The notes under the pieces were generated by a model that ran no database searches, had not been told where the DNA came from, and saw only the letters and a list, made by a program, of their open reading frames with translations. A stretch of DNA of 64,000 nucleotides from Pelagibacterium flavum (lineage in GTDB: Bacteria; Pseudomonadota; Alphaproteobacteria; Rhizobiales; Devosiaceae). The stretch lies in contig NZ_CP107716.1 of NCBI RefSeq assembly GCF_025854335.1, positions 1,109,001-1,173,000 of the forward strand. The letters are read 5' to 3'. Below are positions 36,471 to 39,893 of the stretch, in pieces. Each line of letters opens with the position of its first letter. Position 1 is the stretch's first letter. A program made the position numbers and the translations under genes.

Positions 36471-36486
36471 TTGACCGGCTGGTCAA
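36471..36486. promoter_or_regulatory. RutR-like palindrome upstream of the 5'-nucleotidase
   Basis: TTGACCGGCTGGTCAA has perfect TTGACC / GGTCAA arms and matches 13 of 14 fixed positions of the E. coli RutR site TTGACCANNTGGTCAA. It lies in the only intergenic space between the nucleotidase and nrsF genes and can control only the nucleotidase, since nrsF ends there. Confidence 0.55.
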
Positions 36487-36512: not shown

Positions 36513-37154
36513 CTACCAGCGCAGGAGTTTCCGGCCCAGCAGCGCACCGGAGAGGGCGACCAGCCCGACCCCCACAGAATACCAAAGAGCCAGGAAAAGC
36601 ATCCCGTATTCCCCACAATGGAACGCATAGACCGAAGCGCCTGCACCACCCGACGCGAGGCCCGCGGCCAGGCCGGCCAGAGTTGGATTGGCCGGGGCAA
36701 GGCGCCGCATGACCGCCAGCATGATGGCCAGCACGGGGGCGGAGAATGCGACAATGAAGAACGGGCAGACCAGCGCCGTGCTGCCAAAGATCAGAACGGG
36801 CCTGACTGCCTCGGGCGCGTTGCCCCACTGCCAGAGCCCACCGGCCAGCGTGAGGGCGAACACTCCGCCAACCGCCCACAGACCCGGCCAGCTGTCTTTC
36901 TCCGGGCGTGACAGCGCCATGGCAGCCGCCAGGCCAAGCAGGGCGAGCACGCTCGTATAGCCAAGCTTGATCCAGAACATGGCGGTGCCCGGTGCCGTGA
37001 GGATGTCGGTGCGCAGGCCGATCCAGAACACCATCATGATCGCGGCAATGATGGCACCAGCGGTTACCGCGCAAGCCAGCATCCATTGCGGCGTGCCGCG
37101 CCGGGTGGGGCGCAAATCGTCGACGAGGCGATCGATCAGATCGGGATTGTTCAT
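36513..37154 (-). CDS. nrsF: NrsF-type membrane anti-sigma factor (DUF1109)
   Basis: This 213-residue inner-membrane protein has six hydrophobic helices after a short cytoplasmic N-terminus (MNNPDLIDRLVDDLRPTRR). It belongs to the DUF1109/NrsF family that holds the ECF factor SigF inactive. Two cysteines in the family-typical places, Cys130 (STALVCPFF) and Cys180 (YAFHCGEYG), are likely redox or metal sensors; Cys28 is a third. The ATG overlaps the sigF stop by four bases (ATGA), so the two are translationally coupled. Confidence 0.88.
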   Translation of the reverse strand: MNNPDLIDRLVDDLRPTRRGTPQWMLACAVTAGAIIAAIMMVFWIGLRTDILTAPGTAMFWIKLGYTSVLALLGLAAAMALSRPEKDSWPGLWAVGGVFALTLAGGLWQWGNAPEAVRPVLIFGSTALVCPFFIVAFSAPVLAIMLAVMRRLAPANPTLAGLAAGLASGGAGASVYAFHCGEYGMLFLALWYSVGVGLVALSGALLGRKLLRW

Positions 37155-37696
37155 CGTCTGTCTCCCGCAAAGCGCGCCATGAGCGCTTTCAAGCCCCGGT
37201 GGATGGCGATTTTTGCCGCGCCCTCGGTCATGCCATGGGCCGATGCGGCTTCAGAAACCGAAGAGCCTTCGACCTTGACCTTGCGGATCAGGGTCGAAGT
37301 GCGCTCGGGCAGGGTTGCGAGCACCCGGTCGAGATCGTGGGCAGCCATAGTGCTGCCCGGCTGCGAGCCATCGGCGAAGTCATCGTCCAGCGGCACTGTG
37401 GCACGGATGGAGTGGCGGCGCAGATGATCGACGAGCTTGTAATGGGCAATGGCGTGCAGCCAGGCGGTAAACGGCCGGTCCGGATCGTAGGTCAGACGTC
37501 TTGTGTGCACGGCCAACAGCGTCTCCTGAATCAAGTCCTCGACATGGGCGGCATGGGTTGGAGCGAGCCGCCGGGAAAAATAGATGCGCAGATAATGGGT
37601 CAACTCGCCGAGAAGCTGACGATAGGCCGGCTTGTCGCCGTCGAGCGACGACAGCACCAGCGCACGGAGCTGCGTTTCGAGAGAATCCATATGCAT
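37151..37696 (-). CDS. sigF: ECF RNA polymerase sigma factor SigF
   Basis: The product has 181 residues from the ATG at 37696, which has GAGG five bases upstream; an ATG six bases further on is possible. Region 2 is YLRIYFSRRLAPTHAAHVEDLIQETLLAVHTRRLTYDPDRPFTAWLHAIAHYKLVDHLRR. Region 4 is LATLPERTSTLIRKVKVEGSSVSEAASAHGMTEGAAKIAIHRGLKAL. It pairs with the NrsF anti-sigma factor. Its own promoter and that of the divergent operon both have GTAAC-N16-CGAA, so it should activate itself and the methionine-rich protein/YedZ/YedY genes. Confidence 0.92.
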   Translation of the reverse strand: MHMDSLETQLRALVLSSLDGDKPAYRQLLGELTHYLRIYFSRRLAPTHAAHVEDLIQETLLAVHTRRLTYDPDRPFTAWLHAIAHYKLVDHLRRHSIRATVPLDDDFADGSQPGSTMAAHDLDRVLATLPERTSTLIRKVKVEGSSVSEAASAHGMTEGAAKIAIHRGLKALMARFAGDRR

Positions 37697-37706
37697 CAGG
37701 CCTCTA

Positions 37707-37732
37707 TTCGTCCCACGCCGCCGAAACGTTAC
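37707..37732 (-). promoter_or_regulatory. SigF-type ECF promoter of sigF-nrsF
   Basis: On the minus strand GTAACG (37732-37727) is followed after exactly 16 bases by CGAA (37710-37707), 10 bases before the sigF start codon. The same elements with the same spacing occur on the other strand. Confidence 0.75.
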
Positions 37733-37779
37733 AGCGGGGCCGCGAAATAATCGAGTTGGGTACACGATTTCGTGAGGGT

Positions 37780-37805
37780 GTAACCTGGGCTGAACCGAAA
37801 ACGAA
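37780..37805 (+). promoter_or_regulatory. SigF-type ECF promoter of the methionine-rich/YedZY operon
   Basis: GTAACC (37780-37785), 16 bases, then CGAA (37802-37805) fit the known SigF consensus. The start codon of the small methionine-rich protein is 53 bases downstream. Confidence 0.8.
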
Positions 37806-37858
37806 TGTTGAGCCGTACCGTATCAATGAGCTGCGGTCGCAACCTCAAGGGAGACTAA

Positions 37859-38197
37859 ATGATGTTCACCAAAACGATTTTTGCCGCCGCCGTTCTTGCG
37901 CTGACCCTTCCGGCCGCCGTCCAGGCTCAGGATGCAATGGCCAGCGACAGCATGGCCAGTGACTCGATGGCGAGCGATTCCATGGCCATGGATTCCATGG
38001 CGCCGATGATGTCGGAGGAGGATCTCGCGCTCTGCATCGAGCAGGCCCAGGCGATCACCTTTGCTGACGTGGCCGCAGCGGCGGAAGAAGCATGCCATAC
38101 GGTTCACAATGGCGAGGCCATGGGTTCCGACGCCATGGCGGGTGATGCTATGGCGAGCGAGACAATGGAAGGCGACGCTATGGCGCCGCAGCAGTAA
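37859..38197 (+). CDS. Methionine-rich periplasmic repeat protein (MrpX-like)
   Basis: The protein has 112 residues with a signal peptide (cut after about residue 23, AVQA). The mature chain of 89 residues has 13 methionines, no lysine and no arginine. Five methionines are spaced exactly five residues apart at 27, 32, 37, 42 and 47 (MASDS units), and again at 88, 93, 98, 103 and 108, flanking a helical middle with Cys59 and Cys79. In Azospira such a protein (MrpX) under SigF is oxidised by hypochlorite and repaired by the YedY1/YedZ1 methionine sulfoxide reductase. Here it is followed by just such genes. The role is inferred from composition and context. Confidence 0.82.
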   Translation: MMFTKTIFAAAVLALTLPAAVQAQDAMASDSMASDSMASDSMAMDSMAPMMSEEDLALCIEQAQAITFADVAAAAEEACHTVHNGEAMGSDAMAGDAMASETMEGDAMAPQQ

Positions 38198-38268
38198 GCC
38201 TGCTCTAATGCCGCTTCGCCCCGATTGGCGGATGCCATGGGGCGAAGCATTCCGACAGGGAGAACGAG

Positions 38269-39108
38269 ATGTCCGGAGCTTCCAGCCAGGACCCCACCGC
38301 CAGGCAGGTCATCAAGCGTCAGTCGATCTGGACGCGGCTCACCCATTGGGTGTGGGTGATTTGCCTGTTCTTTCTGTTGTTTACCGGACTGCAGATTTTC
38401 AACGCCCATCCGAGCCTCTATATCGGGCAGCAATCGGGGTTCGAATTTTCCAATTCGATCCTGTCGATGGGCGCCGTCCGCAATCCCGACGGATCGATCT
38501 CGGGGATCACGACAATCTTCGGGCATCGCTTCGATACCACCGGTATCTTCGGCTATTCGGGGCCGGAAGGTCAGGAACGGGTGCGCGGCTTTCCCGCGTG
38601 GGCGACCATTCCCTCCTATCAGGATCTGGGCACCGGTCGTGTCGTTCACCTGTTCTTCGGCTGGCTTCTGGTCGGCACCATGTTCGTCTGGTTCGTTGCC
38701 AGTCTCATCAACGGACATTTGCGGCGCGACATCATTCCGACCGGCACGGACATCAAGTCGCTGCCTTCCGATGTTGCCGCCCATGCGCGGCTGAAATTCC
38801 GTCACACGCGGCATTACAACGTGCTGCAAAAGCTCAGCTACGGCGTCGTGCTGCTGATCCTGTTTCCGCTGATCGTTCTGACCGGGCTCTCCATGTCACC
38901 GGGCATGAACGCGGCCTGGCCGTGGCTGATTGAAATCTTCGGTGGGCGGCAGACGGCGCGCACCATCCATTTCATCACCATGGCGCTGCTGGTGGGGTTC
39001 TTTATCGTCCATATCGTCATGGTGCTGCTGGCAGGACCGCTCAACACGATGCGCTCGATGGTTACCGGCAAATACAGGATCGACCCCGAAACGGAGGGAG
39101 AGAAATGA
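38269..39108 (+). CDS. Cytochrome b561-type membrane subunit (YedZ1-like)
   Basis: The product has 279 residues with four main membrane helices. Histidines placed within helices, His26 (TRLTHWVW), His127 (RVVHLFFGW), His234 and His248 (TIHFITMALLVGFFIVHIV), are good candidates for the ligands of two b hemes. A periplasmic loop of about 60 residues separates helices 1 and 2. It resembles hydrogenase/formate dehydrogenase-type cytochrome b rather than canonical MsrQ. It should feed quinol electrons to the molybdoenzyme encoded next, whose ATG overlaps its stop by four bases. Confidence 0.85.
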   Translation: MSGASSQDPTARQVIKRQSIWTRLTHWVWVICLFFLLFTGLQIFNAHPSLYIGQQSGFEFSNSILSMGAVRNPDGSISGITTIFGHRFDTTGIFGYSGPEGQERVRGFPAWATIPSYQDLGTGRVVHLFFGWLLVGTMFVWFVASLINGHLRRDIIPTGTDIKSLPSDVAAHARLKFRHTRHYNVLQKLSYGVVLLILFPLIVLTGLSMSPGMNAAWPWLIEIFGGRQTARTIHFITMALLVGFFIVHIVMVLLAGPLNTMRSMVTGKYRIDPETEGEK

Positions 39109-39893
39109 AGCGCTTTTCAATGCAGCGGCGAAAGTTCCTCACCGCGTCGGCGGCCGGCGTGGCCGGGGTGACGCTGGCGGGGTGCGATCAGTTCGATTCC
39201 CTGTTGCGGCCCGGCCATCCGGTGCGCGACACGCTCGCTTCGGCGAACGATCTGACCCTTGCCGCCCAAAGACTGTTTTTGGGCGATGAGGCACTGGCCA
39301 AGGAATTTGCCGAAAGCGAAATCCGCCAGGGCATGCGTCCTAACGGGACAACCGACCCGCAGAAGGCCGACTACGTCGCGCTGCGGAATAATGATTTTGC
39401 CGACTATCAACTGGTGGTCGACGGACTTGTGGAAACCCCGCAATCCTACTCTCTCAACCAGTTGCGCAATATGCCGTCGCGGACCCAGATCACCCGCCAC
39501 GACTGCGTCGAGGGTTGGAGCTGTATTGCCAAATGGACCGGCGTGCCGCTTACGCTCATCCTCGACGAGGTTCGCCCCACGGCCAATGCGCGCTATTGCG
39601 TTTTCCATTGCTACGACAATTACGGGGGCGGGCTTTCGGCCTCACCTTATTACGAAAGTGTCGATCTGATCGATGCGCGCCATCCTCAGACGATTCTGGC
39701 CTATGGCATGAACGATGCCGCTTTGCCGGTGCGCAACGGCGCGCCTGTGCGGGTGCGGATCGAGCGCCAGCTTGGCTACAAGATGGCCAAATATCTGCGT
39801 CGCATCGAACTTGTCGACGATTTCAGCCAGTTGCACCGCGGCAAGGGCAGCTATTGGGCCGATCACGGGTATGATTGGTACGCAGGGATATAG
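39105..39893 (+). CDS. YedY/MsrP-like molybdopterin-dependent oxidoreductase
   Basis: The product has 262 residues. The N-terminus has a twin-arginine signal (MQRRKFLTASAAG) and a possible lipobox (TLAGC, Cys27), pointing to Tat export and perhaps lipid anchoring. The sulfite-oxidase-fold core has the molybdenum-ligand Cys134 in RHDCVEGWSCIAKWTGVPL, close to the RCVEAWS motif of YedY, and APVRVRIERQLGYKMAKYLRRIELVDDF for the cofactor. Together with the cytochrome b it should reduce protein methionine sulfoxide in the periplasm. It ends ten bases before the convergent allA gene. Confidence 0.87.
   Translation: MKRFSMQRRKFLTASAAGVAGVTLAGCDQFDSLLRPGHPVRDTLASANDLTLAAQRLFLGDEALAKEFAESEIRQGMRPNGTTDPQKADYVALRNNDFADYQLVVDGLVETPQSYSLNQLRNMPSRTQITRHDCVEGWSCIAKWTGVPLTLILDEVRPTANARYCVFHCYDNYGGGLSASPYYESVDLIDARHPQTILAYGMNDAALPVRNGAPVRVRIERQLGYKMAKYLRRIELVDDFSQLHRGKGSYWADHGYDWYAGI

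What the first reader, a model, noticed from the sequence alone, without database searches (positions are those of the whole stretch)
36513..39893. Complete SigF-NrsF / methionine-rich protein / YedZ-YedY hypochlorite-repair regulon
Seen: ECF sigma factor coupled to a DUF1109 anti-sigma factor, divergent from a periplasmic Met-rich protein, a cytochrome b and a Tat-exported YedY-like molybdoenzyme. Known: in Azospira, SigF/NrsF controls mrpX-yedY1-yedZ1, where MrpX is a sacrificial target of hypochlorite repaired by YedY1/YedZ1. Inference: this Hyphomicrobiales organism carries the same defence, with the gene order Met protein - cytochrome - molybdoenzyme and a different repeat unit.
Basis: partly seen in the sequence, partly recalled or inferred. 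Interest (0 to 1): 0.75.

Follow-up and report, generated by a model that had tools for sequence, protein, structure and literature searches.

The report
Hypochlorite-defence operon with unusual cytochrome partner
This is a small gene set by which a free-living bacterium probably senses bleach-like oxidants and repairs oxidised methionines outside its inner membrane; the same gene set is already known from a relative, but its electron-carrying cytochrome belongs to another family than its usual name says and its methionine-rich protein has a local design of its own.

Summary
Window 36513-39893 encodes an ECF sigma factor and NrsF anti-sigma factor, and divergently a Met-rich exported protein, a cytochrome b and a twin-arginine molybdoenzyme. 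Both operons start at ECF16 promoters. Two corrections. The cytochrome is not YedZ/MsrQ: it is PF01292, with a formate-dehydrogenase-gamma-like model, and the genome has no PF01794 match. The molybdoenzyme is YedY-like but falls outside the MsrP rows. Two additions. In 11 of 12 Devosiaceae loci the Met-rich protein has a C-X19-C core, absent from the Brucella tritici one. The enzyme pair stands without sigma, nrsF and Met-rich gene at the same place in 8 of 10 other genus genomes that have it, and 4 of 22 SigF loci lack the Met-rich gene, so that protein is probably an accessory. Induction by hypochlorite here is inferred, not shown.

The parts
36513..37154 (-). NrsF-family anti-sigma factor (family described as six-helix membrane protein, PMC3511200); C130 and C180 are the conserved pair
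   Evidence: PF06532 E 3.3e-60; C130 in 34 of 36 and C180 in 36 of 36 aligned NrsF proteins
37151..37696 (-). ECF sigma factor (ECF16 / SigF / BcrS type); start at 37696 or 37690
   Evidence: PF04542, PF08281; sigma+NrsF tree: in a 19-row clade (97/98) with loci that carry the molybdoenzyme
37707..37732 (-). ECF16-type promoter of sigF-nrsF (GTAACG-N16-CGAA)
   Evidence: 0.10 matches expected per window
37780..37805 (+). ECF16-type promoter of the Met-rich/cytochrome/molybdoenzyme operon (GTAACC-N16-CGAA)
   Evidence: same consensus in PMC3511200 and PMC8315932
37859..38197 (+). exported Met-rich protein (MrpX/BcrX-like) with SDSMA/GDAMA-type repeats around a C-X19-C core
38269..39108 (+). membrane cytochrome b of the b561 / formate dehydrogenase gamma kind; quinol-side electron donor (inferred)
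   Evidence: PF01292 E 3.9e-19; best PDB fold match 1kqf_C, E 4.5e-4; no significant BLASTP match to E. coli MsrQ
39105..39893 (+). twin-arginine molybdoenzyme of the sulfite oxidase fold, YedY/MsrP-like, Mo-ligand motif HDCVEGWS, lipobox
   Evidence: PF00174 E 5.1e-35; first 8 PDB fold matches are YedY chains 1xdq/1xdy, TM about 0.5; tree

Best explanation
A periplasmic oxidant, most likely hypochlorite or another strong methionine/thiol oxidant, modifies the conserved NrsF cysteines (C130, C180) and frees the ECF16 sigma factor. The sigma factor drives its own operon and the divergent operon. That operon makes (i) a periplasmic Met-rich protein that reacts with the oxidant, (ii) a membrane cytochrome b of the formate-dehydrogenase-gamma/b561 kind that takes electrons from quinol, and (iii) a Tat-exported, probably lipid-anchored, YedY-like molybdoenzyme that uses them to reduce methionine sulfoxide in envelope proteins, the Met-rich protein among them. 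Shown by sequence: gene content, promoter sites, families, conserved cysteines, conserved gene set. Inferred from published relatives: HOCl as signal, cysteine sensing, MetSO reduction. Inferred only: electron path and lipid anchor.
For: Two exact ECF16 promoter sites. The sigma/NrsF pair lies in one supported clade with that of Brucella tritici. The operon has the order of Brucella bcrXQP, for which HOCl induction, sigma dependence and lower HOCl survival of the triple mutant at 1.5 h are reported (PMC8315932). A table in PMC9751292 names DUF1109 proteins near chlorite dismutase genes 'RCS-sensing anti-sigma factor'. Nearest solved relative is YedY. msrA and msrB lie beside the same genes in Microvirga and Kozakia. 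The cytochrome is in 79 of the 80 named loci fetched for the molybdoenzyme, so the two probably work as a pair.
Against: No expression or enzyme data from this organism. SigF relatives answer to other stresses: chromium and cadmium, and not ROS agents, in Caulobacter (PMC3511200); H2O2 and singlet oxygen in Bradyrhizobium (PMC3420878); none of H2O2, Cd and chromate in fusions with S. meliloti rpoE7 and its target (PMC6180224). The molybdoenzyme scores 103.6 bits against the MsrP equivalog cut-off of 207, so MsrP activity cannot be read off. In Brucella the triple mutant was weaker at 1.5 h, but at 4.5 h only the sigma mutant was lower than the other strains; I saw no MetSO assay in the sections read.
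Confidence: 0.7

Rival explanations
1. The enzyme pair is a general envelope MetSO repair system and the Met-rich protein is a dispensable accessory (sink or oxidant buffer), not its dedicated substrate.
For: 8 of the 10 other genus genomes that have the molybdoenzyme keep cytochrome and molybdoenzyme at the same chromosomal place without sigma, nrsF or a Met-rich gene there. 4 of 22 loci with sigma, nrsF and both enzymes (L111, L118, L193, L195) have the cytochrome directly behind the promoter and no secreted Met-rich frame in the locus, judged by eye. A profile of the Met-rich protein gave nothing better than E 0.002 in those 8 genomes and nothing in G314 and G330.
Against: 18 of 22 such loci do carry a Met-rich gene, so the link is strong where the sigma factor is present. 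The profile missed a known case (G307) and had been built partly from genomes it was tested on, so absence elsewhere in a genome is not certain.
Confidence: 0.45
2. The module answers mainly to metals or other oxidants (chromate, cadmium, singlet oxygen, peroxide) and hypochlorite is a laboratory proxy.
For: Caulobacter SigF answers to Cr and Cd; Bradyrhizobium EcfF to H2O2 and singlet oxygen.
Against: The window pair clusters with the Brucella-type sigma/NrsF, apart from the bufferin-linked SigF of the same genus (branch 100/100); Brucella mutants showed no H2O2 phenotype, data not shown in the paper.
Confidence: 0.25
3. The Met-rich protein is a copper or other metal-binding protein.
For: Met-rich motifs can bind Cu(I) (recalled); other ECF16 loci belong to bufferin clusters, said to help under copper stress (PMC12452194); DUF692/DUF2063/DoxX-like genes, recognised by eye, sit by the second SigF of G292-G294.
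Against: It travels with a YedY-like reductase, and in two loci near msrA/msrB. I did not search for copper genes around it.
Confidence: 0.12
4. The molybdoenzyme is a sulfite dehydrogenase or another S-/N-oxide reductase.
For: Fold is shared with sulfite oxidases; weak family scores to SorA 59 and SoxC 54 bits.
Against: The MsrP model scores higher, 103.6 bits; first fold matches are YedY; Mo-ligand motif CVEGWS, as CVE(A/G)WS in the four MsrP rows, against CSGNSR in one sulfite-type row.
Confidence: 0.1

Closest known systems
Brucella melitensis bcrS-abcS / bcrXQP (PMC8315932; abstract, passages and sections 6, 7, 13 read)
   Same: Same five genes, same order, divergent layout, same promoter consensus; the Brucella tritici homologues are 51, 42, 49 and 58% identical for sigma, NrsF, cytochrome and molybdoenzyme.
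   Different: The Brucella tritici Met-rich protein has MXKDX-type repeats and no cysteine; here SDSMA/GDAMA-type repeats and a C-X19-C core. The paper calls BcrQ homologous to MsrQ; the B. tritici homologue is PF01292. B. melitensis itself was not examined.
Azospira suillum SigF/NrsF-MrpX-YedY1-YedZ1 (Melnyk 2015, not held; seen only as described in passages of PMC5748585, PMC4623255, PMC8315932, PMC10746228)
   Same: Sigma/anti-sigma, Met-rich peptide, YedY-like molybdoenzyme, membrane partner.
   Different: Sequence not available here, so the family of YedZ1 and the tree position of YedY1 are untested.
E. coli MsrPQ (YedYZ)
   Same: Molybdoenzyme fold, CVE(A/G)WS motif, 34.7% identity over 147 aa to MsrP.
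   Different: Four MsrP rows form a separate clade (99); E. coli MsrQ is PF01794, the partner here PF01292.
Caulobacter SigF-NrsF (PMC3511200, passages read)
   Same: ECF16 sigma, NrsF with two cysteines, promoter GTAACC-N16-CGAA, a YedY gene in the regulon.
   Different: Most targets are DUF2282/DUF692/DUF2063/DoxX genes; signal Cr and Cd.

Membership tests
ECF16 sigma / NrsF system | ECF sigma with regions 2 and 4 only | tested here: met
ECF16 sigma / NrsF system | DUF1109/NrsF anti-sigma encoded next to it, two conserved cysteines | tested here: met
   PF06532 E 3.3e-60; C130 34 of 36, C180 36 of 36. The NCBIfam AntiSigF_NrsF equivalog cut-off of 300 bits is not reached (150 bits)
ECF16 sigma / NrsF system | GTAACC-N16-CGAA promoter before the sigma operon and target | tested here: met
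   GTAACG and GTAACC forms present; use of the promoters not testable
BcrXQP / MrpX-type hypochlorite module | exported Met-rich protein, cytochrome and YedY-like molybdoenzyme in one gene row behind the sigma-type promoter | tested here: met
   co-transcription not testable
BcrXQP / MrpX-type hypochlorite module | MXKDX repeat protein family | tested here: inconclusive
   TIGR02953 38.3 bits against cut-off 41
BcrXQP / MrpX-type hypochlorite module | induction by and protection from HOCl | not testable with these tools
   needs bench work
MsrPQ (YedYZ) | catalytic subunit is an MsrP equivalog | tested here: not met
   103.6 bits, cut-off 207; outside the clade of four MsrP rows
MsrPQ (YedYZ) | membrane partner of the MsrQ/Ferric_reduct family PF01794 | tested here: not met
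   PF01292 instead; 0 PF01794 matches in the genome, the same search rings in E. coli
Sulfite dehydrogenase (SorA/SorT/SoxC) | NCBIfam equivalog score | tested here: not met
   59, 29 and 54 bits against cut-offs 600, 570, 420

The most novel reading that the evidence does not exclude
The b561/FdnI-type cytochrome plus YedY-like molybdoenzyme is a second, non-orthologous quinol-fed periplasmic methionine-sulfoxide repair system, scattered through Alphaproteobacteria (18 of 289 sampled class genomes at E 1e-30) and, in a more distant form, on an E. coli plasmid, that has been mistaken for MsrPQ. It was coupled to and uncoupled from a SigF/NrsF/Met-rich cassette several times, and in Devosiaceae the Met-rich protein has become a combined methionine sink and thiol/disulfide element (C-X19-C).
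Probability: 0.35. Interest if true: 0.55.

Novelty: new member of a known kind. Interest (0 to 1): 0.38.

Why it matters
It extends a hypochlorite-defence operon known from Brucella and Azospira to a free-living Devosiaceae genus. The genus offers a natural experiment: the same chromosomal place with and without the regulators and the Met-rich gene. That makes an open question testable, namely whether the Met-rich peptide is the enzyme's main substrate or an optional sink. It also corrects a family label: the electron donor is not MsrQ, so the electron path into this reductase has to be worked out separately.

Tried and rejected
Regulon search: 17 exact promoter matches in the genome against 28 for the reversed control pattern, so beyond the two divergent sites nothing can be called a target. 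Testing whether the 12 fetched sites lie in open frames was useless, because the two sites in question do too.

Promoter kept in trans: 2 of 8 cassette-less genus loci (L250, L253) still have a sigma-type site before the cytochrome, both in genomes with a distant SigF/NrsF; the two other cassette-less genomes with a distant NrsF (G291, G292) lack it. No conclusion drawn.

Gain or loss: adjacency of sigma/nrsF needs at least 8 changes on the 52-row molybdoenzyme tree (6 forced by starred branches) but only 1 within the genus. Parsimony within the genus favours one gain. In 6 of 6 family loci outside the genus (L177, L178, L180, L181, L193, L195) the same nucleotidase gene lies on the nrsF side, 1.0-2.3 kb away (0.2 kb in the genus), which favours old presence and repeated loss. 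Left open.

One search picked the most Met-rich upstream frame mechanically and mostly returns noise; only loci confirmed are used. Structure models are of middling confidence (pLDDT 75 and 80) and used at family level only. The MXKDX paper search gave two unrelated Asaia papers in the listing.
Full report
What is there. The window lies in a 3.93 Mb single-contig genome. Two assemblies of its genus have contigs of the same lengths as Pelagibacterium luteolum (471,935) and P. lentulum (318,129) in the named collection, so I infer Pelagibacterium, Devosiaceae. Between a 5'-nucleotidase gene and ureide-catabolism genes (named by eye) lie sigma and nrsF on the minus strand and, divergently, a Met-rich gene, a cytochrome b gene and a molybdoenzyme gene. 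The cytochrome and molybdoenzyme frames overlap by 4 bases.

Regulation. Exact ECF16 promoters sit at 37707-37732 (minus) and 37780-37805 (plus): 3 matches in the window against 0.10 expected, 0 of 100 shuffles reaching 3; the third is inside a long open frame. The consensus GTAACC-N16-CGAA is that of Caulobacter SigF (PMC3511200, passages) and, in effect, Brucella BcrS (PMC8315932, section 7). The -10 element ends 10 or 16 bases before the two possible sigma start codons, so its mRNA is probably nearly leaderless (inference). NrsF cysteines C130 and C180 are conserved in 34 and 36 of 36 aligned proteins; these were chosen from 97 loci with both genes. The matching pair is needed for normal control in Caulobacter and Bradyrhizobium (passages).

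Which SigF. In a tree of joined sigma and NrsF (36 rows), the window pair lies in a 19-row clade (97/98) with the Brucella tritici, Microvirga, Devosia and two unnamed same-order loci; all 19 come from loci that carry the molybdoenzyme. The SigF/NrsF of three other genus genomes that sit by bufferin-like genes (G292, G293, G294) lie across a branch of 100/100. Two more molybdoenzyme-bearing loci (L199, L202) lie elsewhere in that tree. This favours the Brucella-like role over the metal role without proving it.

The cytochrome. It matches PF01292 (E 3.9e-19) and not PF01794. The whole genome has no PF01794 match, while the same search rings in E. coli and Caulobacter. The predicted model (pLDDT 80) matches E. 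coli formate dehydrogenase N gamma first (1kqf_C, E 4.5e-4), then hydrogenase-1 cytochrome b at E 0.013 and 0.039. BLASTP against MsrQ gives nothing below E 3.7. So 'YedZ' is the wrong family. The listings of paper searches showed me no paper on this partner type, but the Azospira paper is not held, so I cannot say it is unreported.

The molybdoenzyme. Its nearest solved relative by sequence is 1xdq (YedY, E 2.5e-18) and by fold the first 8 hits are 1xdq/1xdy (TM about 0.5, model pLDDT 75); its motif is CVEGWS. But it reaches half the MsrP equivalog score, and in a 73-row tree four MsrP rows form a separate clade (99) on a long branch; that was a quick search with a long-branch warning. An RR motif and a lipobox occur together in 48 of 52 family rows by pattern, suggesting a lipid anchor. 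The genome has one other PF00174 match, short and weak.

The Met-rich protein. Its repeats (SDSMA, GDAMA) differ from MXKDX. In 11 of 12 Devosiaceae loci with the gene (9 of them aligned) it has two cysteines 19 residues apart and a His four residues after the second, flanked by Met repeats; the exception is L177 with 7 Cys. The Brucella tritici and L199 proteins have no Cys; two same-order ones (L179, L203) have three.

Uncoupling. Of 11 other genus genomes searched, 10 have the molybdoenzyme (the missing one is 84% complete) and 6 have NrsF, but only G296 and G297 have both together. In the other 8 the cytochrome and molybdoenzyme sit at the same place, with the nucleotidase on one side and ureide genes on the other (in L249 and L250 about 1 kb with another frame lies between cytochrome and nucleotidase), and no sigma, nrsF or Met-rich gene there. 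Of 22 loci in hand with sigma, nrsF and both enzymes, 18 have a Met-rich gene (16 right behind the promoter, L024 further down, L202 behind the molybdoenzyme) and 4 (L111, L118, L193, L195) do not. A profile search for the Met-rich protein over 29 genomes found it strongly in 6 (G000, G296, G297, G323, G325, G333), of which four had given rows to the profile, at E 1e-11 in G305, weakly (E 0.001-0.004) in G291, G294 and G318, and missed the known one in G307. On a 52-row tree adjacency of sigma/nrsF changed at least 8 times.

Published state. Brucella bcrS-abcS/bcrXQP is the same arrangement: HOCl-induced and sigma-dependent; the bcrXQP deletion lowered HOCl survival at 1.5 h, at 4.5 h only the sigma mutant was lower; no H2O2 effect (PMC8315932; abstract, passages, sections 6, 7, 13). 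The Azospira system was seen only through passages of PMC5748585, PMC4623255 and PMC10746228.

Verdict. Real, well supported as a gene set, and a member of a known kind of system. The new content is the corrected cytochrome family, the Devosiaceae Met-rich design, and the evidence that the enzyme pair stands on its own.

Noticed in passing
36471-36486: Perfect palindrome TTGACC-N4-GGTCAA between nrsF and the 5'-nucleotidase gene; the same form is seen in the 330 bases before the cytochrome in 6 of 8 cassette-less genus loci. Possible operator of the nucleotidase gene.
   Followed up: partly
L270 (E. coli plasmid p899091_2): A cytochrome b/b6-domain and molybdoenzyme pair of the more distant clade sits on an E. 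coli plasmid near an IS26-family transposase; tblastn listed 75 Escherichia plasmid records with some match to the window molybdoenzyme.
   Followed up: partly
L184, L186, L188, L191: In four other genus genomes a second SigF/NrsF type stands by DUF692/DUF2063/DoxX-like genes resembling bufferin operons; families named by eye, not scanned.
   Followed up: partly
L048: A contig labelled Thermomicrobiales MAG carries a molybdoenzyme 61% identical to the window's, with no cytochrome match in its 4 kb; perhaps mis-binned.
   Followed up: no
L057, L099, L122 upstream of the cytochrome gene: In three loci without SigF a secreted fasciclin-like protein (recognised by eye) precedes the cytochrome-molybdoenzyme pair, a possible other substrate.
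   Followed up: no
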